A DNA stretch of 64,000 bases from Pontiellaceae bacterium B1224 (GTDB lineage: Bacteria > Verrucomicrobiota > Kiritimatiellia > Kiritimatiellales > Pontiellaceae). Position numbers and translations under genes: made by a program. Position 1 is the first letter of the stretch. Each line of letters starts with the position of its first letter. The notes beneath the pieces were generated by a model, which was given only the letters and a program-made list of their open reading frames with translations, was not told the DNA's origin and did not search any database. This document shows, piece after piece, positions 35,682-56,053 of the stretch. The stretch is from contig JAROBA010000027.1 in NCBI GenBank assembly GCA_029432815.1, positions 1 to 64,000 of the forward strand. Direction: 5' to 3'.

Positions 35682-35698
35682 TGGCACACTCCATGCAT
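35682..35698 (+). promoter_or_regulatory. Sigma54 (-24/-12) promoter of modA2-modB-modC
   Basis: TGGCAC-ACTCC-ATGCAT with GG at 35683-35684 and GC at 35695-35696, ten bases apart. Predicted start near 35708, 45 bases before the modA2 ATG. Confidence 0.85.
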
Positions 35699-38571: not shown

Positions 38572-38588
38572 TGGCACACCCTGTGCAT
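38572..38588 (+). promoter_or_regulatory. Sigma54 (-24/-12) promoter of nirB
   Basis: TGGCAC-ACCCT-GTGCAT with GG at 38573-38574 and GC at 38585-38586, ten bases apart. Predicted start near 38598, 22 bases before the ATG. Confidence 0.88.
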
Positions 38589-38619
38589 ATAGGCCCGTTT
38601 AATTATAGAGGTGCTTTAC

Positions 38620-41529
38620 ATGAGTTTAAAGAAACACGAGGTTGTCGTGGTCGGCAACGGAATGGTGAGCGTTCGGTTCTGCCAACGCCTGCTGGAATAT
38701 GACAAAAATAAACGGTTCCACATCAAGGTGCTCGGAGAGGAATGCCGACCGGCCTACGACCGAGTACAGCTGACCTCCTTTTACGAAAAAGAATCGGCCG
38801 ACGAACTGATCCTCGAGCCTGCCTCGTGGTACGAGCAAAACGGTATTGAGCTATTTACCGGAGACCGCGTGGTTGAAATTGACCGCAAGCACAGGACGGT
38901 TTCCACACAGAGCGGACGGCAGTGTGCTTACGACCACTTGATTCTCGCCACCGGTTCCAGCCCATTTGTACCGCCGATAAAAGGAAAAGACCTGCCCGGC
39001 GTTTTTGTCTACCGCACGATCGAAGACCTGGAGGCGATCCGGGAATACGCGAAGACCGCGACAACGGCTTCCGTGATCGGCGGTGGACTGCTGGGGCTCG
39101 AGGCGGCGAAGGCCGTTCATGACATGGGCCTGCAAACAACCGTCGTTGAGCGCTCTTCCCGTCTGCTCACCCGGCAGGTCGATACGGGCGGCGGCGTTAT
39201 TCTGAAACACCTCATCGAAGATCTCGGCGTACATGTGGCCATCGATAAAGTGACGCTGCACTTCACCGGTGAAGATAAAGTCGATGGCATCGCCTTCGAA
39301 GGCGACAATCATCTGCAAACCGACATGATCATTATTTCCGCCGGCATCCGACCGAACGATGAACTGGCGAAAGAGTGCGACATCAAAGTCGGTCCGCGCG
39401 GCGGCATTGAGATCGACTCTAAAACCCGCACGTCAGATCATCATATTCACGCCATTGGAGAATGCGCACTCTATGACGGCATGATCTACGGGCTGGTTGC
39501 GCCGGGCTACGACATGGCCGATGCGGCCGCCGCCAACCTCTGCCACGAAAAGAAACTTTTCGAAGGCGCAGATATGTCCACCAAGCTCAAGCTGATGGGT
39601 GTGGATGTTGCCAGTGCCGGCGAACCTCTCCTGCCGGAAGAGCAGACGAAAGCCGTTGTGGTCTACGACAGTCACCGCGGCATATATAAAAAGCTGGTAC
39701 TCTCGCTCGACGGCAAAAAACTGCTGGGTGCCGTACTGGTCGGCGATGCCTCGGAATACGGCCTGCTTTCCGCTATCTGCAAAAAAGGCATGGAACTTCC
39801 AGATGAACCGGAAACCCTGCTGGTTAAAACCGGCGCGCATAACGATGTGGTCATTGAATATGACGACGACGAGATCATCTGCTCCTGTAAAGACGTCACC
39901 GCCGGCGCAATCCGCAAAGTGGTGCAGGATGGTGGCACCACATTCGCCGCTGTCAAAAAAGAAACCCATTGCGGCACCGGTTGCGGCGGATGCGCCGCCG
40001 TTGCCACCGATATCTTTGAATCGGAAATGACGAAGATGGGCGTCGAAATCGACACCTCCCTTTGCGAGCATTTTTCCTATACCCGTCAGGAGCTGTTCAA
40101 CATTGTCAAAGTGACGGGCGCAAAATCCTTCGACGAAGTCATCGAAAGCCACGGCAAAGGTGCCGGTTGCGAAATCTGCAAGCCCGCCACTGCCTCGATC
40201 CTCGCTTCCATCCAGAACGACCACGTGGTGAACCACGCGCAGATTCAGGACACCAACGATAAATACATGGGCAACATTCAGCGCAATGGAACCTACTCCG
40301 TGGTGCCGCGCGCTCCCGGCGGAGAACTGACACCCGATCAGCTGATTGTGATCGGCGAGGTGGCCAAGAAATATGATCTCTACACCAAGGTGACCGGCGG
40401 CCAGCGCATCGACCTCTTCGGCGCGCATCTCAACCAGCTTCCCGATATCTGGAAAGAGCTGATTGCAGCCGGACTCGAAACCGGCCATGCCTATGGCAAA
40501 TCGCTGCGGACCGTCAAGAGCTGCGTCGGCAGCAGCTGGTGCCGCTTTGGCCTGAAAGACTCGGTCGACATGGCCGTGGATCTGGAAAACCGATACAAAG
40601 GACTGCGCTCGCCGCATAAACTCAAAATGGCCGTATCCGGCTGCGTGCGCGAATGCGCCGAGGCGCAGAGCAAAGACGTCGGCCTGATTGCCACCGAAGA
40701 CGGATGGAATATTTATGTCTGCGGCAACGGCGGGGTCACCCCGCGCCATGCCGACCTGCTCGCCACCAATGTCGACGACGAAACGGCCATCAAATATATC
40801 GACCGTTTCCTAATGTATTATGTCCGCACCGCCGATCGCCTGATGCGTACCGCCCCCTGGATGGAAAAGCTGGAAGGCGGACTCAAGCACCTGCAGGATG
40901 TCGTCATCAACGATTCGCTGGGCCTCAACGACCAGCTCGAAGCCGACATGCAGCACGTGGTCGACACCTACCAGTGCGAATGGGCCACCACACTGAACGA
41001 TCCGGAAAAACTGAAAATGTTCCATCACTACAGCAACTCCGATGAAACCGATCAGTTTGAATACATCGAAGTCCGCGGCCAGAAACGTCCGGCTCCATGG
41101 AAAAAGGAATATGAACCGCTCGTTCCGGAGCCCACCGAAAATGCGGAAACGCAGTGGGTCTGCTTCGGCGAAGCGTCGGCCATTCCGAAAGACGGCGGCG
41201 AAACCCTGAAATATGGCCGCCACCAGATTGCCGTCTTTAACTTCGCCAAAACCGACCAATGGTTTGCCAGCCAGAACCTCTGCCCGCACAAGCGCGAGAT
41301 GGTCCTCTCCCGCGGATTGCTGGGCGATGTGGATGGGTTACCGAAAGTCGTCTGCCCCATGCATAAGCGGGCCTTCTCGCTGGAAACCGGCGAAGGGCTG
41401 AGCGATCCGGAACTGAGCATCTCCACCTTCCCGGTGGAAATCCGCGAAGGCCGCATCTTCATCGATCTGCCAACGGAAGAGGAGCTCGACAAGCTCCACA
41501 TCTGCAATCCCGACAAAGTCTGCTCTTAA
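38620..41529 (+). CDS. nirB: Assimilatory nitrite reductase, NirB-NirD fusion
   Basis: NAD(P)H nitrite reductase, nitrite to ammonium, 969 residues. In order: FAD/NAD module (VVVVGNGMVSVRF near residue 6; VIGGGLLGLEAAKA near 150), BFD-type [2Fe-2S] (CSCKDVTAGAIRKV then CGTGCGGC), a second BFD-like repeat, the siroheme/4Fe-4S half with Cys635, Cys641 (CVGSSWC) and Cys675, Cys679 (CVREC), then a Rieske-type NirD domain from about 845. Unlike E. coli NirD, the Rieske ligands are all present: Cys888/His890 and Cys912/His915. GAGGTG precedes ATG 38620. A sigma54 promoter stands upstream and an intrinsic terminator follows. Confidence 0.94.
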   Translation: MSLKKHEVVVVGNGMVSVRFCQRLLEYDKNKRFHIKVLGEECRPAYDRVQLTSFYEKESADELILEPASWYEQNGIELFTGDRVVEIDRKHRTVSTQSGRQCAYDHLILATGSSPFVPPIKGKDLPGVFVYRTIEDLEAIREYAKTATTASVIGGGLLGLEAAKAVHDMGLQTTVVERSSRLLTRQVDTGGGVILKHLIEDLGVHVAIDKVTLHFTGEDKVDGIAFEGDNHLQTDMIIISAGIRPNDELAKECDIKVGPRGGIEIDSKTRTSDHHIHAIGECALYDGMIYGLVAPGYDMADAAAANLCHEKKLFEGADMSTKLKLMGVDVASAGEPLLPEEQTKAVVVYDSHRGIYKKLVLSLDGKKLLGAVLVGDASEYGLLSAICKKGMELPDEPETLLVKTGAHNDVVIEYDDDEIICSCKDVTAGAIRKVVQDGGTTFAAVKKETHCGTGCGGCAAVATDIFESEMTKMGVEIDTSLCEHFSYTRQELFNIVKVTGAKSFDEVIESHGKGAGCEICKPATASILASIQNDHVVNHAQIQDTNDKYMGNIQRNGTYSVVPRAPGGELTPDQLIVIGEVAKKYDLYTKVTGGQRIDLFGAHLNQLPDIWKELIAAGLETGHAYGKSLRTVKSCVGSSWCRFGLKDSVDMAVDLENRYKGLRSPHKLKMAVSGCVRECAEAQSKDVGLIATEDGWNIYVCGNGGVTPRHADLLATNVDDETAIKYIDRFLMYYVRTADRLMRTAPWMEKLEGGLKHLQDVVINDSLGLNDQLEADMQHVVDTYQCEWATTLNDPEKLKMFHHYSNSDETDQFEYIEVRGQKRPAPWKKEYEPLVPEPTENAETQWVCFGEASAIPKDGGETLKYGRHQIAVFNFAKTDQWFASQNLCPHKREMVLSRGLLGDVDGLPKVVCPMHKRAFSLETGEGLSDPELSISTFPVEIREGRIFIDLPTEEELDKLHICNPDKVCS

Positions 41530-46849: not shown

Positions 46850-46939
46850 ATCGTGAAAAGTGACGCATAAAACGTGATGCTTGATACGTGATCAGAATAG
46901 AATCACGGCTCACTCGTCACGTTTCACGCATCACTCATC
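46850..46939. repeat. Composite inverted-repeat element, copy 4 (moaA-moaD), without central palindrome
   Basis: ATCGTGAAAAGTGACGC and AAAACGTGATGC on the left, AATCACGGCTCACTCGTCAC then GTTTCACGC on the right. It fills the whole gap and touches the moaA stop. The TTCCAA centre is missing. Confidence 0.75.
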
Positions 46940-47966
46940 ATCCTCCAATATAAAACATTTCGATTTTGTGTTTTGATTCCTGCTTTGTTTCACCGCCCCA
47001 GCGGGTCTGACTGTACTGATCGTTGCGGTCGCACCAGACCTGGCGAATGGAGTTGTGCAGCTCTTCATCGGATGATCCGTCACGTAGTTGCGTCCGCAGG
47101 TCGGCGCCTTCGGTGGCGAAGAGGCAGGTGTAGAGCTTGCCGTCGGCCGAGAGGCGACTGCGGTTGCAGGGTCGACAGAAGGGCTGGCTAATGGAGGAGA
47201 CGAATCCGATTTCCCCGCCGCCATCGGAGAAGCGATAACGGTCGGCCACTTCGCCGGTATAATGTTTTGCAACCGGCTCAATTTTCCAATGATTGGAAAT
47301 ATACTGAATCAGCTCAGCAGTCGGCACCACCTGATCGCGCTCCCAGTGGTTGACGTTGCCGACATCCATATATTCAATGAAACGCACCACCACCCGGCTG
47401 CCCCGGAACTCTTCGATGATCGGTACGATTTCGCTCATATTCATGTCGCGCCGGACGACCATATTGACCTTAAGATTTCCGAAGCCGGCCGCTTTGGCGG
47501 CGTCGATTCCTTCCAGCACCTGCTGCGGCGAATCAAAGCCGCCGTTCATTTTGCGGAAAATGGTTTTATCCAGCGCGTCGAGGCTGACCGTCACCCGATC
47601 GAGCCCGGCCTGGCGCAGCGCTTGAGCGTAGCGTGAAAGCAGAATACCGTTGGTCGTCATGGCAATGTCGCGAATACCGGGTACCGCATTCAAGCGGGAC
47701 ACCAGCTCCGGCAGATCGCTGCGCAGCAGCGGCTCCCCGCCGGTGAGGCGGATCTTTTCCACCCCGAGTTTAGAAAACTGAGTGACCAGACGGATCATTT
47801 CATCGAAGGAGAGCTGCTCGCTTTTCTTAAGCCAGGGAAAATCCGGCCCGACTTCATCGGCCGGCATGCAATAAGTGCAACGAAAGTTGCAGCGGTCGAT
47901 GACGGACAGCCGCAGATCGCGCATGGGGCGGCCGAGCTGATCTTTTACTGTATTCTCTTCAGACAT
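46938..47966 (-). CDS. moaA: GTP 3',8-cyclase MoaA
   Basis: Radical SAM enzyme for the first step of molybdopterin synthesis, 342 residues. The N-terminal cluster motif CNFRCTYC has Cys26, Cys30 and Cys33; the C-terminal 4Fe-4S site is FCRPCNRSRLSADGKLYTC. RLTGGEPLLR is the family GGEP motif, and the protein ends in the functionally important Gly-Gly (FYIGG). The palindrome 47284-47298 is inside (Ser-Asn-His-Trp-Lys). It is the first gene of moaA-moaD-moaE/moeB behind a sigma54-type promoter at 48135-48150. Confidence 0.95.
   Translation of the reverse strand: MSEENTVKDQLGRPMRDLRLSVIDRCNFRCTYCMPADEVGPDFPWLKKSEQLSFDEMIRLVTQFSKLGVEKIRLTGGEPLLRSDLPELVSRLNAVPGIRDIAMTTNGILLSRYAQALRQAGLDRVTVSLDALDKTIFRKMNGGFDSPQQVLEGIDAAKAAGFGNLKVNMVVRRDMNMSEIVPIIEEFRGSRVVVRFIEYMDVGNVNHWERDQVVPTAELIQYISNHWKIEPVAKHYTGEVADRYRFSDGGGEIGFVSSISQPFCRPCNRSRLSADGKLYTCLFATEGADLRTQLRDGSSDEELHNSIRQVWCDRNDQYSQTRWGGETKQESKHKIEMFYIGG
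47284..47298. repeat. TTCCAA-N3-TTGGAA palindrome (spacer TGA), intragenic
   Basis: Perfect copy in moaA, read on the minus strand as Ser-Asn-His-Trp-Lys, the third frame. Confidence 0.85.
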
Positions 47967-48134: not shown

Positions 48135-48150
48135 TGCAGGGAGTGTGCCA
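48135..48150 (-). promoter_or_regulatory. Sigma54 (-24/-12) promoter of moaA-moaD-moaE/moeB
   Basis: On the minus strand TGGCAC-ACTCC-CTGCA, with GG at 48149-48148 and GC at 48137-48136, ten bases apart. Predicted start near 48124, giving a leader of about 160 bases that contains inverted repeat copy 5. Confidence 0.8.
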
Positions 48151-48371: not shown

Positions 48372-48388
48372 TGGCACACCTCCTGCAA
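48372..48388 (+). promoter_or_regulatory. Sigma54 (-24/-12) promoter of narK
   Basis: TGGCAC-ACCTC-CTGCAA with GG at 48373-48374 and GC at 48385-48386, ten bases apart. Predicted start near 48398, 80 bases before the ATG. Confidence 0.88.
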
Positions 48389-49950: not shown

Positions 49951-50028
49951 GCTGAAAAGTGAAACGTGAGGCGTGATTGCCTTTCCAATGATTGGAAGTC
50001 ATAATGCCCTCACGTTTCACGACTCACT
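49951..50028. repeat. Composite inverted-repeat element, copy 5 (narK-kinase)
   Basis: Left arm AAAAGTGAAACGTGAGGCGT, centre a perfect TTCCAA-TGA-TTGGAA (49983-49997), right arm CCCTCACGTTTCACGACTCA. It fills the gap and ends five bases before the kinase ATG, leaving no room for a normal ribosome site. Confidence 0.8.
49983..49997. repeat. TTCCAA-N3-TTGGAA palindrome (spacer TGA)
   Basis: Perfect copy at the centre of composite element copy 5. Confidence 0.85.
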
Positions 50029-50032
50029 ACCC

Positions 50033-51769
50033 ATGTTCCACCTCGACGGAAAAATTGAACTCACGACCGGCCAGGGCACCTCGGCCGGTCGCAAGGCATC
50101 GAACGACGATGCCACCGCTGTTCATATTCCTGAGGACGAACTGTTAACCACCCACAAAGGGATTGTGGCGGTCATCGCCGACGGCGTCAGCAGCGCGGAT
50201 GCCGCCGCCGAAGCCGCTCAACTCTGCACCCGGCGTTTTATTTCCGACTACTACGCCAGCCCGGAAATATGGACCACCAAACATTCCGGCCAGAATGTGC
50301 TCACCACCCTCAATCGTGAACTCTACAATAATGGCAAAACCTATCGAACCGCTGAAAAAGGATTCATCTGCACGCTCAGCGTCGTCATCTTTAAATCGCA
50401 TACCGCGCACATTTTTCATATTGGCGACACCCGAATCTACCGCCTGCGCAACGGCACGCTGAAGCAGCTGACCGAAGACCACAACCAGCAGATCAATGCG
50501 GAAACGAGCTATCTCTCCCGCGCCATGGGACTTGACAGTCAGGCCCGCATTGACTACTCCACCGTCGACCTTCAGGAAGGCGATACTTTTCTGCTGACGA
50601 CAGATGGCCTGCATGAAAACATCGATGAGCCGCGCATCATCACCCTGCTCGAATCCAACCAAGGTAATCCGGACAAATGCTGTTCCATGCTGATAGACGA
50701 AGCCTATGCCATGAACAGCAAAGATAATATTTCCTGCATCACGCTCAACATTACCAAGCTGCCGGAAAACTCGCGCGAAGAAATCGACCACCGTTTAACC
50801 CAACTCCCCTTCCCGCCCCCACTGACCAAAGGCCAGACGCTCGATGGCTACAAAGTTATCGACGAAATCCACGCCAGCAGCCGTAGCCAGGTCTATCAGG
50901 TGGAGGACGAAGAAACCGGCACGGCCTACGCAATGAAAACACCGTCGCTGAACTTTGAGGATGACGACGCATATATCGAGCGCTTCATCATGGAGAGCTG
51001 GATCGGGGCACGCATCAACTCCCCGAATGTTGCACATGTGATTGAGCAGCAGCGCCCGCGCAGCTGCCTCTATTTTCTATTGGAATTTGTACCCGGCATT
51101 TCGCTCTCACGCTGGGAAGAAGAAAACCATCTGCCCCAGCTGCAGACCGTGCGGGAGATTGCCCAGCAGATGACCAAAGGGCTGCGCGCCTTCCACCGCA
51201 AAGAGATTTTGCATCAGGACCTCAAGCCCGACAATATTATGATCGACCGGCACGGGCGCATAAAGATTGTTGATTTCGGGTCCTGCCGCGTGGCGGGTTT
51301 CGAAGAAATCTGCGGGCCGATTGAACGCGACCTGATCCTCGGCACGGTCGACTATACCGCCCCCGAATACCAGCTGCGCCTGCCCGCCGGAACCTGGTCA
51401 GACCTCTTCAGCCTCGGCTGTATTCTCTATTTCCTGCTGACCGGCGAACATCCCTACGGACCGCAGTTTTCCAAATGCCGGAAACGGGCTGATTTCGAAA
51501 AACTGAAATACCGGCCGTCCTATCACTTCAACCCTGACATCCCCGTCTGGGTGGATGGCGCGCTCGAAAAAGCGGTAAAAGTGAAACCGGAGGAGCGCTA
51601 CGAAGCGCACTCCAAATTTATGGCCGATCTCAACAAACCGAACCCCGACTTTGTTGAAAAAAACCGAATCCCGCTGGTAGAGCGAAATCCCCTCCTCTTC
51701 TGGAAAACCCTCTGCGGCATACTGGCCGCGATCATCGCCATCCTCCTGCTGATGCTGGCGAACGGATAA
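50033..51769 (+). CDS. PP2C phosphatase - Ser/Thr protein kinase fusion with C-terminal membrane anchor
   Basis: At 578 residues. Residues about 1-250 form a PP2C-type phosphatase (VIADGVSSADAAAEAA, HIFHIGDTRIYRL, LLTTDGLHENID, with the metal-binding Asp residues). About 265-530 is a Hanks-type kinase: HQDLKPDNIMID with Asp396 and Asn401, DFG Asp414, and an APE-like APEYQL. One membrane span ends the chain (ILAAIIAILLLMLAN). I recall similar bifunctional proteins beside nitrate assimilation genes in marine Gammaproteobacteria, so it is probably a regulator of nitrate uptake or reduction. The targets are unknown. The ATG at 50033 has no visible ribosome site because composite repeat copy 5 abuts it. 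Confidence 0.88.
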   Translation: MFHLDGKIELTTGQGTSAGRKASNDDATAVHIPEDELLTTHKGIVAVIADGVSSADAAAEAAQLCTRRFISDYYASPEIWTTKHSGQNVLTTLNRELYNNGKTYRTAEKGFICTLSVVIFKSHTAHIFHIGDTRIYRLRNGTLKQLTEDHNQQINAETSYLSRAMGLDSQARIDYSTVDLQEGDTFLLTTDGLHENIDEPRIITLLESNQGNPDKCCSMLIDEAYAMNSKDNISCITLNITKLPENSREEIDHRLTQLPFPPPLTKGQTLDGYKVIDEIHASSRSQVYQVEDEETGTAYAMKTPSLNFEDDDAYIERFIMESWIGARINSPNVAHVIEQQRPRSCLYFLLEFVPGISLSRWEEENHLPQLQTVREIAQQMTKGLRAFHRKEILHQDLKPDNIMIDRHGRIKIVDFGSCRVAGFEEICGPIERDLILGTVDYTAPEYQLRLPAGTWSDLFSLGCILYFLLTGEHPYGPQFSKCRKRADFEKLKYRPSYHFNPDIPVWVDGALEKAVKVKPEERYEAHSKFMADLNKPNPDFVEKNRIPLVERNPLLFWKTLCGILAAIIAILLLMLANG

Positions 51770-52104: not shown

Positions 52105-52120
52105 TGGCATGGTGTGTGCG
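52105..52120 (+). promoter_or_regulatory. Sigma54 (-24/-12) promoter of the nitrate reductase operon
   Basis: TGGCAT-GGTGT-GTGCG with GG at 52106-52107 and GC at 52118-52119, ten bases apart. Predicted start near 52131, 30 bases before the ATG at 52161. It is less close to consensus than the others. Confidence 0.7.
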
Positions 52121-52160: not shown

Positions 52161-53855
52161 ATGAACCCATCTTCAGACACAAAACAGGGCTGCTGCGGAG
52201 GCGGCTGCTCCGGCTCCAAACCAACGACGGAGGCTCCAGCCAAGCCATGCGAATCCGCCCCCGTCGATCGGCCGGACATTGTCGGCTTCCGCACGGAAGG
52301 GCGCGAATCGCAGACGCGCTTTCATTTCCACATGGACCTGTGTATTGGCTGCCACGCCTGCGAGGTGGCCTGCGGCGAACAGAATAACCTGCCGGCCGAG
52401 ACCCAATGGCGCCGCGTCGGCGAAGTCCAAAGCGGAACCTTTCCCGACACCCAAAGCTTTTTTCTTTCCAGCGGTTGTAATCACTGTCTCGATGCGGCCT
52501 GCGCCAAAGGCTGCCCGGTGGATGCCTATCAGGTGAACGACAAAGGCATTGTCATTCATTTGGACGACGTCTGCATCGGCTGCGGCTACTGCACCTGGAA
52601 CTGCCCGTATGGCGTGCCGACAATGCAGACTGACCGGCGCATCGTCACCAAGTGCGACCTCTGTCATAACCGCCTGGAAGATGGTCAGGACCCGGCCTGC
52701 GTAGCCGCCTGCCCCGCCGGAGCCATCGAAGTTGAAACGGTTGCCATCGCCCAGATTTTTGCAGAGCATATGGAAAACGGCGTCGGCCCGGATATGCCCG
52801 CGCCGAACCTCACGATTCCTTCCACCAAGATCACCCTGCCCGAAGGCATGGACGTGGCAGCCTTCACGAAGGTGGACCAGCCGTTCGTGAAGCCGGAGCA
52901 TCCGCACACGCCGCTGATCGTTATGACCGTTTTGACGCAGCTTGGATTCGGCGGGTTCTGCACCGTCTTTATGGCCGACCTGATTCGCACGTTTTTCTTC
53001 GACAGCGCGGCGCTCGGCCATGTACTCGGATGGCTGGCCCCCACGCTGATGGGCATTGTTGCCCTGTCGCTCGGTGCCTCCACACTGCATCTGGGCCGTC
53101 CGATCCATGCCGGGCGCGCGATGAAGAACTGGAAATCCTCATGGTTATCGCGCGAGGTGCTGGGTCTCTCCGCCTTTGCGGGAGCGGCCATGGTTTATGC
53201 GCTGATCCTGTTTGTGACCGAGGGGCTGGGTCTGCTGGACATCGGTGTCATCGGCGGCTCAGCCGTTCGGCTGATCATCGGCTTCGGCACGGTGATCTGC
53301 GGGATTGCCGGCATTTACTGCAGCTCAATGATCTATCGCGTGCCGGCCCGCCCGGCCTGGGACAGCCGCAAAACCACCATCGACTTTTTTGATGTCGCCG
53401 CCATCCTCGGGCCGGCCGCTTTCATTGTTGCCGCCATGGTGGCCACCCTGATTGCCGGCCACTCCATCGGATTCCTTACCGGAGCCATGCAGACCGCCGC
53501 TCTATTTGCCGCGATCGCCTTTGTGTTCAAGCACACCAAGAATGCATATATCATTAAAAAATGGCATGAGTCGGACACGCACGAACTCAAAGCCAGCGCC
53601 GAAATGCGCATAACACACTTTTTCCGCCTGCGGATGATCCGCAACAGCATCGGCATTGCCGGGCTGCTGGCGCTGATTCCGTTCATGAGCAGCACGGCCC
53701 TGCTCTCCGCCGTTGGCCTGCTGGCCATTGCGCTGCTGATGCTGATGCTCTTTTTAGCCGTCAGCTTTATCAACCGCTATATTTTCTTCGTCTCCGTGGT
53801 GCCGCGCAACATACCCGGCAACTACGTCGTCGCCTCCAAAGGCGAAGCGCACTAA
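52161..53855 (+). CDS. Fused DmsB-like Fe-S subunit and DmsC-like membrane anchor
   Basis: At 564 residues. A Cys-rich N-terminal tail (GCCGGGCSG) precedes a ferredoxin-like part with four 4Fe-4S motifs: CIGCHACEVAC, CNHCLDAACAKGCP, CIGCGYCTWNCPYG and CDLCHNRLEDGQDPACVAACP. From about residue 250 come roughly eight membrane spans of the DmsC/NrfD-like quinol-binding type (TLHLGRPIHAGRAMKNWKSS is typical of DmsC). It should pass electrons from quinol to the catalytic subunit encoded next. Fusion of the two subunits, and pairing with a nitrate-reductase-like subunit instead of DmsA, are both notable. There is no strong ribosome site before ATG 52161. Confidence 0.88.
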   Translation: MNPSSDTKQGCCGGGCSGSKPTTEAPAKPCESAPVDRPDIVGFRTEGRESQTRFHFHMDLCIGCHACEVACGEQNNLPAETQWRRVGEVQSGTFPDTQSFFLSSGCNHCLDAACAKGCPVDAYQVNDKGIVIHLDDVCIGCGYCTWNCPYGVPTMQTDRRIVTKCDLCHNRLEDGQDPACVAACPAGAIEVETVAIAQIFAEHMENGVGPDMPAPNLTIPSTKITLPEGMDVAAFTKVDQPFVKPEHPHTPLIVMTVLTQLGFGGFCTVFMADLIRTFFFDSAALGHVLGWLAPTLMGIVALSLGASTLHLGRPIHAGRAMKNWKSSWLSREVLGLSAFAGAAMVYALILFVTEGLGLLDIGVIGGSAVRLIIGFGTVICGIAGIYCSSMIYRVPARPAWDSRKTTIDFFDVAAILGPAAFIVAAMVATLIAGHSIGFLTGAMQTAALFAAIAFVFKHTKNAYIIKKWHESDTHELKASAEMRITHFFRLRMIRNSIGIAGLLALIPFMSSTALLSAVGLLAIALLMLMLFLAVSFINRYIFFVSVVPRNIPGNYVVASKGEAH

Positions 53856-53869
53856 CTCCGGATTTCAAC

Positions 53870-56053
53870 ATGATCAAAAAAATCAAACACCTCATCGGGC
53901 TCGACATCAAAGAAGAGGAATATGCCTACGGCCATGATCCGGAATACGGATACTTAGCCGCGCGCAAGATTCCCGACCGCTGGGTTAAATCGACCTGCGG
54001 CTACTGCAGTGTGGGCTGCGGCATGCTGCTGGGCGTTAAGGATGATAAAATTATCTCCGTGCGCGGCGACAAGGATCATCCTGTCAACGAAGGCGACCTC
54101 TGTCCGAAAGGGCTGAGCGAACACCACCCGCTGACCAGCCCGGACCGAGCGGTTTCGCCGCTGCTTAAACAACCAGACGGATCCTTTAAAGAGGCGAGCT
54201 GGGACGAGGCCTACGACCGCATGGTCGATACCGTTTCTAAAGTACAGAAAAAATACGGCCCCGAAAGTTTCGGCGTGCTTTCCACCGGACAGTTGCTGAC
54301 CGAAGAATTTTATACGCTAGGCAAGCTCGTGCAGCTGGGCTTCGGCACCAACAACTATGATGGCAATACCACGCTGTGCATGTCATCCCCTGTGGTCGGC
54401 TATAAACAAAGCTTCGGTTCAGACGGACCGCCCGGCTCCTACAAAGGCCTCGCCACGGCCGATGTCATCTTCCTCACCGGTGCCAACATTGCCGACAACC
54501 ACCCGATCCTCTGGCACCACATCCGCAAGAATAAGGATTTCAAACTGATCGTCTGCGACCCGCGCAAAACCAAGACCGCCATGCTGGCCGATCTGTACCT
54601 TCCGCTCAAACCGCGCCGCGACATCGACCTGATTAACGGCCTGATTCATCTCGTGATTAAAAACGGCAAGGTGGACCGGGACTATATTGATAAACACACC
54701 ACCGGCTACGAGGAACTGTGCAAACATGCTGAGGCATTCGATCTCGCCACCACCGTTGAACGCACCGGGATTTCGGAAGAACGCATCCTCGAAACCTACG
54801 AAGCCATCGCCAACGGAAAGAATGTCTTCTTCGGCTGGACCATGGGCATTAATCACAGCACGCAGGGCTCCGACACCGTCAGCCTGATTAATACGCTCGC
54901 ATTGATTACCGGCAACATCGGCCGAACCGGCGCCGCGCCGATGAGCATTACCGGCCAGTGCAACGCCATGGGTTCGCGTGAATTCAGCTTTTCCTCGTCG
55001 CCGCCCGGCTACCGTAAATTTGAAAAAGCCGAGGACCGAAAAGAACTGGCCGAACTGTGGAATATTGACGAAAGCCTGATGCCCACCGCACGGGGAGGAA
55101 ACTATCCGGAGATTATCGACGGGATCCTCGAAGGAAAAATCAAAGCGCTTTGGGTGATTGCCACCAATCCGGTGGTCAGCTTCTCCGATCAGGACCGGCT
55201 CAAGAAAGCCCTCGCCAAACTCGAGATCCTGATTGTGCAGGACGGCTTCCATCCGACCCCCACCACCGAGCTGGCCGATGTGGTACTGCCCGCCGCCATC
55301 TGGGGAGAAAAGGACGGATCGTTCACCAACACCGAACGCCGGGCCTCCCGCGCCAATGCCGCCGTGCCTCCGCCGGGGATGGCCCGTTCCGATTTCCAGA
55401 TCTGTCTGGATCTGGCCGACAAGCTCGGCAAGAAGGACATGCTTTTCCCGGAATGGACCCGGACAGAGGATGCGTTTGAAGAAATGCGTAAAATTTCCAA
55501 AGGCCGACTCTGCGATTACAGCGGTATGACCGTTGAAAAAATGACAGAACAAGGCGGGCTTCAGTGGCCCTGCAACGAAGCCAACCCCGACGGGTCCGAC
55601 AGTCTTTACACCGATGGAATCTTCAAAACCGAGGACGGCAAGGCCAAGCTTCTTTTCACCTCACCGGAAAAACTTCCGGAAGACGTCGACGGAAGCTATC
55701 GCCTCATCCTCAACACCGGCCGGACGGTGGAGATGTGGCACACCGGAACCAAAACCCGCAACGTGCCGCTGCTGAACAAACTCGCACCGGAAGCCTGGGT
55801 GGAAGTGAACCCCGCCACCGCTAAATATTACGGCATCGGCCCGCACGACCGCGTGTCGCTCGTCTCCCGCCGCGGCCGCGTGGACAACCTGATGGTTCGC
55901 ATTGCTGAAACCATCCATCCCGATCATGTATTCATGCCGTTCCACTTCGCCGAGAAATGCATTAACAAACTGACCGTCCCCGCCTTCGATCCGAAATCAG
56001 GCACCCCCAACTATAAACAGTGCGCCGTGCAACTCGAGCGCTACCGCGGTTAA
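53870..56053 (+). CDS. Molybdopterin nitrate reductase catalytic subunit, NasA/NapA-like
   Basis: Mo-bis-MGD oxidoreductase, nitrate to nitrite, 727 residues. An N-terminal 4Fe-4S site has Cys43, Cys46, Cys50 (CGYCSVGC) and a fourth in GDLCPKG. The Cys that ligates Mo is Cys170 in NTTLCMSSPVVGYKQSFGSD, as in Nas/Nap enzymes. MGD-binding segments include GANIADNHPILWHH and ATNPVVSFSDQDR. There is no twin-arginine signal, so the enzyme is cytoplasmic and probably assimilatory. It follows the DmsBC-like gene by 14 bases. Formate dehydrogenase relatives share the fold, but transporter, NirBD and motif agree on nitrate. Confidence 0.88.
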   Translation: MIKKIKHLIGLDIKEEEYAYGHDPEYGYLAARKIPDRWVKSTCGYCSVGCGMLLGVKDDKIISVRGDKDHPVNEGDLCPKGLSEHHPLTSPDRAVSPLLKQPDGSFKEASWDEAYDRMVDTVSKVQKKYGPESFGVLSTGQLLTEEFYTLGKLVQLGFGTNNYDGNTTLCMSSPVVGYKQSFGSDGPPGSYKGLATADVIFLTGANIADNHPILWHHIRKNKDFKLIVCDPRKTKTAMLADLYLPLKPRRDIDLINGLIHLVIKNGKVDRDYIDKHTTGYEELCKHAEAFDLATTVERTGISEERILETYEAIANGKNVFFGWTMGINHSTQGSDTVSLINTLALITGNIGRTGAAPMSITGQCNAMGSREFSFSSSPPGYRKFEKAEDRKELAELWNIDESLMPTARGGNYPEIIDGILEGKIKALWVIATNPVVSFSDQDRLKKALAKLEILIVQDGFHPTPTTELADVVLPAAIWGEKDGSFTNTERRASRANAAVPPPGMARSDFQICLDLADKLGKKDMLFPEWTRTEDAFEEMRKISKGRLCDYSGMTVEKMTEQGGLQWPCNEANPDGSDSLYTDGIFKTEDGKAKLLFTSPEKLPEDVDGSYRLILNTGRTVEMWHTGTKTRNVPLLNKLAPEAWVEVNPATAKYYGIGPHDRVSLVSRRGRVDNLMVRIAETIHPDHVFMPFHFAEKCINKLTVPAFDPKSGTPNYKQCAVQLERYRG

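What the first reader, a model, noticed from the sequence alone, without database searches (positions are those of the whole stretch)
52161..56053. Nitrate reductase paired with a fused DmsB-DmsC-like quinol module
The catalytic subunit has Nas/Nap-type motifs and no export signal, yet its operon partner is a DMSO-reductase-type four-cluster ferredoxin joined to an eight-span anchor in one chain. Known NasA systems use NADH-linked or ferredoxin/flavodoxin donors. This layout implies quinol-linked reduction of nitrate on the cytoplasmic side, a mix of assimilatory and respiratory design. I cannot say whether it is already described.
Basis: partly seen in the sequence, partly recalled or inferred. 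Interest (0 to 1): 0.65.

Follow-up and report, generated by a model that had tools for sequence, protein, structure and literature searches.

The report
Quinol-linked assimilatory nitrate reductase
These bacteria appear to reduce nitrate for growth with an assimilation-type enzyme bolted to a membrane module that draws electrons from the respiratory quinol pool, a pairing found here in at least ten bacterial phyla although the published survey of this enzyme group says it does not occur.

Summary
Window 52161-53855 encodes a fused DmsB-DmsC-type protein (four [4Fe-4S] sites, eight membrane helices). Window 53870-56053 encodes a signal-less Mo-bisPGD enzyme with NasA/NarB motifs. The tree puts it with assimilatory nitrate reductases; placement with formate dehydrogenases is rejected (AU p 2e-5). 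The pair is no accident. Directly adjacent orthologues, usually beside nirB(D) or nirA and often narK, occur in ten named phyla. In 388 genomes of the window's own phylum, 45 carry a second branch of the fusion and the same 45 carry its NasA, including four where the genes lie far apart. All 16 cluster cysteines and the DmsC quinol-site residues His65/Glu87 are invariant. Loop charges put the cluster domain in the cytoplasm, opposite to E. coli DmsABC. The genome has a fused MqnE-MqnC (futalosine menaquinone pathway), no NarG and no other DmsC. Sigma-54-type promoters precede this operon, nirBD, narK, modA, moaA and nifE. Best reading: a cytoplasm-facing menaquinol:nitrate oxidoreductase used for nitrogen assimilation. 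Wells et al. 2020 state that no member of the NasA/NapA/AioA clade has these partner subunits; I found no description in open papers. New variant of a known kind; no biochemistry exists.

The parts
52161..53855 (+). Fused DmsB-DmsC-type protein: N-terminal four-[4Fe-4S] domain (Cys 61-184) and eight-helix DmsC-type quinol module (residues ~250-544; quinol-site His310 and Glu332)
   Evidence: Pfam Fer4_11 + DmsC; 16 Cys and His/Glu invariant in 59 rows, 42 distinct; AlphaFold2 eight TM helices; ActC/PsrC fold
53870..56053 (+). NasA-type catalytic subunit, Mo-bisPGD, one [4Fe-4S], Cys170 Mo ligand followed by Met, no export signal
   Evidence: Pfam; tree and AU tests; motif comparison; Tat scan
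52105..52119 (+). Sigma-54-type -24/-12 promoter-like site TGGCATGGTGTGTGC, 56 bp before the DmsBC start
   Evidence: 7 such sites in the window against 0.54 expected, 0 of 100 shuffles as many; two rpoN genes in the genome
48448..49950 (+). NarK family nitrate/nitrite transporter
   Evidence: TIGR00886 335 bits, over its cut-off
48372..48386 (+). Sigma-54-type site before narK
49973..51769 (+). PP2C phosphatase-Ser/Thr kinase fusion between narK and DmsBC, likely regulatory
   Evidence: Pfam PP2C_2 + Pkinase; same neighbour of NarK in L053 and L063
38611..41529 (+). NirB-NirD fusion: NADH-dependent nitrite reductase, next step of the pathway
   Evidence: Pyr_redox_2, BFD, NIR_SIR, Rieske_2
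38572..38586 (+). Sigma-54-type site before nirBD
35682..35696 (+). Sigma-54-type site before the molybdate-binding protein gene (modA), ahead of modBC
48136..48150 (-). Sigma-54-type site before moaA on the minus strand
   Evidence: moaA ORF 46938-47966

Best explanation
The two genes encode a membrane-bound complex that oxidises menaquinol at the membrane and reduces nitrate to nitrite in the cytoplasm for nitrogen assimilation. Menaquinol is oxidised near the cytoplasmic face of the DmsC-type half, with His310 and Glu332 handling the protons. Electrons pass along the four [4Fe-4S] clusters of the DmsB-type half to the [4Fe-4S] cluster and Mo centre of NasA. Protons are released and consumed on the same side, so nitrate reduction is probably electroneutral and saves NAD(P)H or ferredoxin. 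NarK imports nitrate; the NADH-dependent NirB-NirD fusion takes nitrite to ammonium. Shown by computation: domain content, pairing, co-occurrence, co-evolution, motif conservation, phylogeny, charge asymmetry, presence of key menaquinone enzymes. Inferred: complex formation, quinol as donor, nitrate as substrate, sigma-54 nitrogen control.
For: Pairing: NasA lies directly 3' of the fusion in all complete named loci from ten phyla, usually with NirB(D) or NirA and often NarK nearby. Co-occurrence: identical sets of 45 of 388 genomes, adjacent in 38, over 1 Mb apart or on different contigs in 4; pairwise distances of the two proteins correlate, rho 0.87. Catalytic side: clade with haloarchaeal and Deinococcus Nas, FDH placement rejected, Cys-Met and SxTGQ(C/P)NAMGxR as in Nas, not C/U-H and RGQNNVQG as in FDH. 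Quinol site: His65 and Glu87 of E. coli DmsC map to His310/Glu332, invariant; mutation of His65 blocks quinol oxidation (PMC8076601). Orientation: K+R 10-20 on the DmsB side against 0-5 on the far side in all fusions, 3:6 and 2:6 in E. coli and Proteus DmsC. Quinone: fused MqnE-MqnC over both cut-offs. Sole candidates: one NasA, one DmsC, no NarG in the genome. Assimilation: nirBD and narK in the cluster, sigma-54-type sites before six nitrogen or molybdenum genes, rpoN present.
Against: No biochemistry. NCBIfam cut-offs for NasC, haloarchaeal NasA and FDH are all unmet (FDH model 571 bits, NasC 527). The second-branch operon also holds a CysJ-like NADPH flavoprotein that could feed NasA. A second-branch-like NasA in Cetobacterium has no DmsBC beside it. 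MqnA, MqnB, MqnD and the prenyl transferase were not searched; MenA is absent. The DmsB half of the AlphaFold2 model is of low confidence. Bacillus NasC and cyanobacterial NarB are not in the tree.
Confidence: 0.78

Rival explanations
1. The complex is mainly respiratory: it serves nitrate ammonification or redox balancing by draining menaquinol in anoxic cells, with NirBD as the nitrite sink.
For: Quinol linkage is the hallmark of respiratory reductases. It is the only nitrate reductase found in the genome. Several relatives come from groundwater or deep-sea samples by record title.
Against: Sigma-54-type sites shared with nif, mod and moa genes point to nitrogen control. NirBD or the ferredoxin type NirA, not NrfA, is the partner. 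The predicted geometry gives no redox loop.
Confidence: 0.2
2. DmsBC is only a membrane tether or side branch; the physiological donor is a soluble flavoprotein, ferredoxin or NADH through NirB.
For: CysJ-like flavoprotein follows NasA in the second-branch operon L053; related haloarchaeal NasA uses ferredoxin (PMC2483277).
Against: 16 cluster cysteines and the quinol-site residues are invariant in 42 distinct proteins, which a tether would not need. Presence of the two genes is perfectly linked. No CysJ-type gene was seen beside the pair in the window.
Confidence: 0.08
3. The catalytic subunit is a formate dehydrogenase or another dehydrogenase that feeds electrons into quinone through DmsBC.
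For: The best NCBIfam model is Fdh-alpha (571 bits, below its cut-off); the closest solved structures include FDHs.
Against: Tree and AU tests, active-site motifs, genomic neighbours nirBD and narK.
Confidence: 0.02

Closest known systems
Assimilatory nitrate reductases NasA/NasC/NarB (Klebsiella, Paracoccus, cyanobacteria, Haloferax)
   Same: Catalytic fold and motifs, no export signal, neighbours nirB and narK
   Different: Described donors are NADH, ferredoxin or flavodoxin (PMC2483277), partners soluble; here a fused DmsBC quinol module, and no C-terminal extension as in the Klebsiella and Paracoccus types
DMSO reductase DmsABC
   Same: DmsB-type four-cluster chain and DmsC-type anchor with His65 and Glu87 equivalents
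   Different: B and C fused, opposite charge asymmetry so cytoplasmic, catalytic subunit not DmsA and without Tat signal
SoeABC sulfite dehydrogenase
   Same: Cytoplasmic molybdoenzyme on an NrfD/PsrC-like membrane subunit (PMC6335251) with His65/Glu87 (PMC8076601)
   Different: Sulfite oxidation rather than nitrate reduction; three separate subunits
Respiratory nitrate reductase NarGHI
   Same: Quinol-linked nitrate reduction on the cytoplasmic side (established knowledge)
   Different: No NarG match, Cys rather than Asp ligand, DmsC-type anchor rather than haem-bearing NarI
Periplasmic nitrate reductase Nap
   Same: Related catalytic subunit and Cys-Met motif
   Different: Nap is exported by Tat and forms its own clade

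Membership tests
NasA/NasC/NarB assimilatory nitrate reductase | Phylogenetic position with Nas, outside FDH and Nap | tested here: met
   union of all Nas rows is one side of a branch but with low support (21)
NasA/NasC/NarB assimilatory nitrate reductase | Cys Mo ligand followed by Met; N-terminal CxxCxxxC [4Fe-4S] motif | tested here: met
NasA/NasC/NarB assimilatory nitrate reductase | Cytoplasmic, no Tat signal | tested here: met
   with NapA and DmsA as positive controls
NasA/NasC/NarB assimilatory nitrate reductase | Curated NCBIfam cut-off for NasC (NF047855) or haloarchaeal NasA (NF041323) | tested here: not met
   526.6 of 1100 and 506.1 of 1000 bits; the Klebsiella-type Erwinia NasA also fails both, so this is no exclusion from Nas at large
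NasA/NasC/NarB assimilatory nitrate reductase | Soluble donor partner (NADH, ferredoxin or flavodoxin) | tested here: not met
   operon partner is fused DmsBC
NasA/NasC/NarB assimilatory nitrate reductase | Nitrate reductase activity | not testable with these tools
   needs enzyme assay
DmsABC DMSO reductase | DmsB with four [4Fe-4S] sites and DmsC anchor with quinol-site residues | tested here: met
DmsABC DMSO reductase | DmsA-type catalytic subunit exported by Tat | tested here: not met
NarGHI respiratory nitrate reductase | NarG catalytic subunit in the genome | tested here: not met
   TIGR01580 no match
Formate dehydrogenase (cytoplasmic) | Placement with FDH and C/U-His or C-Gln active-site motif | tested here: not met
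Nap periplasmic nitrate reductase | Tat signal and Nap clade | tested here: not met
SoeABC-like cytoplasm-facing quinone-linked molybdoenzyme | Cluster domain on the cytoplasmic side | tested here: met
   charge asymmetry, (prediction)
SoeABC-like cytoplasm-facing quinone-linked molybdoenzyme | SoeA-type catalytic subunit | not tested
   SoeA was not in the tree

The most novel reading that the evidence does not exclude
A separate class of cytoplasm-facing quinol:nitrate oxidoreductases, evolved independently of NarGHI, whose NrfD-superfamily anchor also moves protons, so that nitrogen assimilation itself conserves energy.
Probability: 0.12. Interest if true: 0.85.

Novelty: new variant of a known kind. 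Interest (0 to 1): 0.64.

Why it matters
It adds a donor class, menaquinol, to assimilatory nitrate reduction, and contradicts the published generalisation that the NasA/NasC-NapA-AioA clade never has four-cluster and membrane-anchor partners (PMC7331816). It spans at least ten phyla and about 15% of well-assembled genomes of one phylum, so many genomes annotated as having 'DMSO reductase B/C' subunits and an orphan nitrate reductase or formate dehydrogenase may instead use quinol-driven nitrate assimilation. It changes energy and redox budgets for such organisms and is directly testable.

Tried and rejected
Formate dehydrogenase identity: rejected by tree, AU test and motifs although it is the best-scoring NCBIfam model. 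Periplasmic orientation as in E. coli DmsABC: rejected by charge asymmetry and lack of a Tat motif. A clade of Q-type proteins without Cetobacterium was rejected (p 0.002), with Cetobacterium accepted (p 0.62), so a single origin of the pairing with a later loss remains possible but is not shown. An apparent fused DmsBC in Proteus proved to be separate dmsB and dmsC genes and became a control. Sigma-70-type promoter and terminator scans before DmsBC gave nothing; no Rfam family in 29-57 kb. Ten literature searches found no description of the pair; only open-access papers were covered.
Full report
What is there. The two ORFs are at the stated coordinates, 14 bp apart, on the same strand. The 564-aa protein carries a DmsB-like four-cluster domain and a DmsC-family (PF04976) membrane domain in one chain. 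The 727-aa protein is a Mo-bisPGD enzyme with its own [4Fe-4S] domain. Upstream lie a NarK transporter (TIGR00886 over its cut-off) and a PP2C-kinase fusion. About 11 kb further upstream lies a NirB-NirD fusion, with molybdate transport and molybdopterin genes in the same stretch and NifE/NifN/NifB-like genes beyond (named from the translations, not from a family search).

Is the pairing real? A scan of genome contigs returned relatives of the fusion from Verrucomicrobiota, Planctomycetota (Sedimentisphaerales), Latescibacterota, Omnitrophota, Nitrospirota, Campylobacterota (Sulfurovum), Myxococcota, Actinomycetota (Acidimicrobiia), Spirochaetota and Chlamydiota. In every one with sequence 3' of the fusion long enough to tell, except one weak short hit (L017), NasA follows directly, and NirB(D), NirA or NarK usually lies within a few kb. 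In the window's own phylum, 45 genomes besides the window's carry a more distant version (about 30-41% identical); 45 carry its NasA at 57% or more to the query used; the sets are identical. NasA lies within 1 kb 3' in 38, 1-3 kb away in three, and far away or on another contig in four. The hypergeometric figure of 5e-60 ignores kinship and is only indicative. Pairwise distances of both proteins correlate (Spearman 0.87 over 28 taxa; 0.60 and 0.65 within the two branches). None of nine sampled genomes of the window's own genus has the pair; after L002 the nearest relatives are in other phyla, which suggests horizontal transfer.

What is the catalytic subunit? In a 48-row tree, the window enzyme sits with its relatives (support 99) in a wider group with haloarchaeal NasA and a Deinococcus nitrate reductase, apart from Nap (100) and FDH (92). 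Forcing the window protein into FDH is rejected (p 1.7e-5), as is forcing all Q-type proteins with FDH (p 1.7e-4). The Mo-ligand Cys170 is followed by Met as in Nas and Nap, where FDHs have His or Gln; the segment SITGQCNAMGSRE matches Nas, not the FDH RGQNNVQG or RGHNNVQG. The AlphaFold2 model resembles Nap and FDH equally well, so the fold does not decide. Automatic annotation fails here: no NCBIfam cut-off is reached, and the best model is FDH.

Where do the electrons come from? All 16 cysteines are invariant in 59 rows (42 distinct proteins). E. coli DmsC His65 and Glu87 align with His310 and Glu332, also invariant. The NrfD review lists these residues in the quinone site, and substitution of His65 blocks quinol oxidation (PMC8076601). 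The membrane half of the model aligns with ActC and with menaquinone-bound PsrC over 245 residues. The genome encodes a single chain that matches MqnC and MqnE in two stretches, over both cut-offs, so menaquinone is probably made by the futalosine route; MenA was not found and other Mqn steps were not searched. A cytochrome bd oxidase is also present. There is one NasA-like protein, one DmsC and no NarG, so no other partner competes.

Which side of the membrane? Loops on the DmsB side hold 10-20 Lys+Arg, those on the far side 0-5, in every fusion examined. E. coli and Proteus DmsC, whose DmsB faces the periplasm (established knowledge for E. coli), show 3:6 and 2:6. Together with the lack of any twin-arginine motif, this places clusters and NasA in the cytoplasm. 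SoeABC is a published precedent for a cytoplasmic molybdoenzyme on an NrfD/PsrC-like anchor (PMC6335251).

Assimilation or respiration? A -24/-12 pattern, TGGCAYRNNNNNTGC, occurs seven times in the window against 0.54 expected (0 of 100 shuffles as many). Six of these lie in front of the NifE-like gene, modA, nirBD, moaA, narK and dmsBC-nasA. Two rpoN genes are present. The pattern was chosen after seeing the site before dmsBC, so the count is slightly flattered, and the sites are not conserved before the dmsBC genes of other phyla. With nirBD and narK beside it, assimilation is the likelier role; a respiratory or redox-balancing role is not excluded.

Mechanism, marked. Shown by computation: parts, pairing, conservation, orientation signal, phylogeny. 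Inferred: menaquinol is oxidised near the cytoplasmic face, electrons pass through four clusters to NasA, nitrate is reduced to nitrite, NirBD completes reduction to ammonium. With both half reactions on one side the step should be electroneutral, unless the anchor also moves protons; the half-channel residues in DmsC-type subunits are poorly conserved (PMC8076601), which makes pumping unlikely.

Variant of the theme. In the second branch the order in L053 is NirA - DmsBC - NasA - CysJ-like flavoprotein - NarK - PP2C/kinase. L053 and L063 share the window's NarK (66%) and kinase (46-48%) more closely than its DmsBC and NasA, so the cluster is a mosaic. Bacteroidota and mycobacterial plasmid records instead fuse extra domains to their nitrate reductase or pair it with rubredoxin, other solutions to the donor problem.

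What is known. Nas enzymes are described as using NADH, ferredoxin or flavodoxin (PMC2483277). Wells et al. 2020 write that none of the members of the NasA/NasC, AioA, NapA and cytoplasmic FDH clade is associated with the canonical four-cluster or membrane-anchor subunits (PMC7331816). Ten searches of open-access papers found no report of this pair; subscription papers and preprints were not covered. I file it as a new variant of a known kind: Nas catalytic subunit, DmsBC-type quinol module, combination not found described.

Limits. No biochemistry. First-branch loci other than the window are MAG contigs. The tree lacks Bacillus NasC, cyanobacterial NarB, AioA, PsrA and SoeA. The cluster half of the AlphaFold2 model is poor. 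The distribution outside the own phylum rests on one seed-based scan and is a lower bound.

Noticed in passing
window 27878, 35682, 38572, 48136(-), 48372, 52105: Sigma-54-type -24/-12 sites stand in front of NifE-like, modA, nirBD, moaA, narK and dmsBC-nasA genes: an apparent nitrogen and molybdenum regulon in one island.
   Followed up: partly
window 49973-51769; L053 16254-17999; L063: PP2C phosphatase-Ser/Thr kinase fusion conserved beside NarK in nitrate clusters whose nitrate reductase is of a different branch; L009 and L010 also hold a distant homologue. Role in nitrate assimilation unknown.
   Followed up: partly
window 38611-41529: NirB and NirD fused in one 972-aa chain, while most relatives have NirD as a separate frame.
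   Followed up: partly
L080 4854-7061 (own genome C129): MqnE and MqnC, two enzymes of the futalosine menaquinone pathway, apparently fused in one 735-aa chain.
   Followed up: partly
L081 8995-12007 (Cetobacterium somerae plasmid): A NasA relative of the second branch without DmsBC, followed by a SLAC1-type anion channel gene and near mobB and moeA; donor unknown.
   Followed up: partly
L053 12437-14170: CysJ-like NADPH flavoprotein directly behind NasA in a second-branch operon with NirA; it may feed NirA.
   Followed up: no
L069 7992-13011, L084 5992-11038 (Bacteroidota plasmids): About 1170-aa nitrate reductases with a long C-terminal extension, followed by a 'rubredoxin' gene of about 490 aa; similar long ORFs occur in genomes of the window's phylum (G015, G023).
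   Followed up: no
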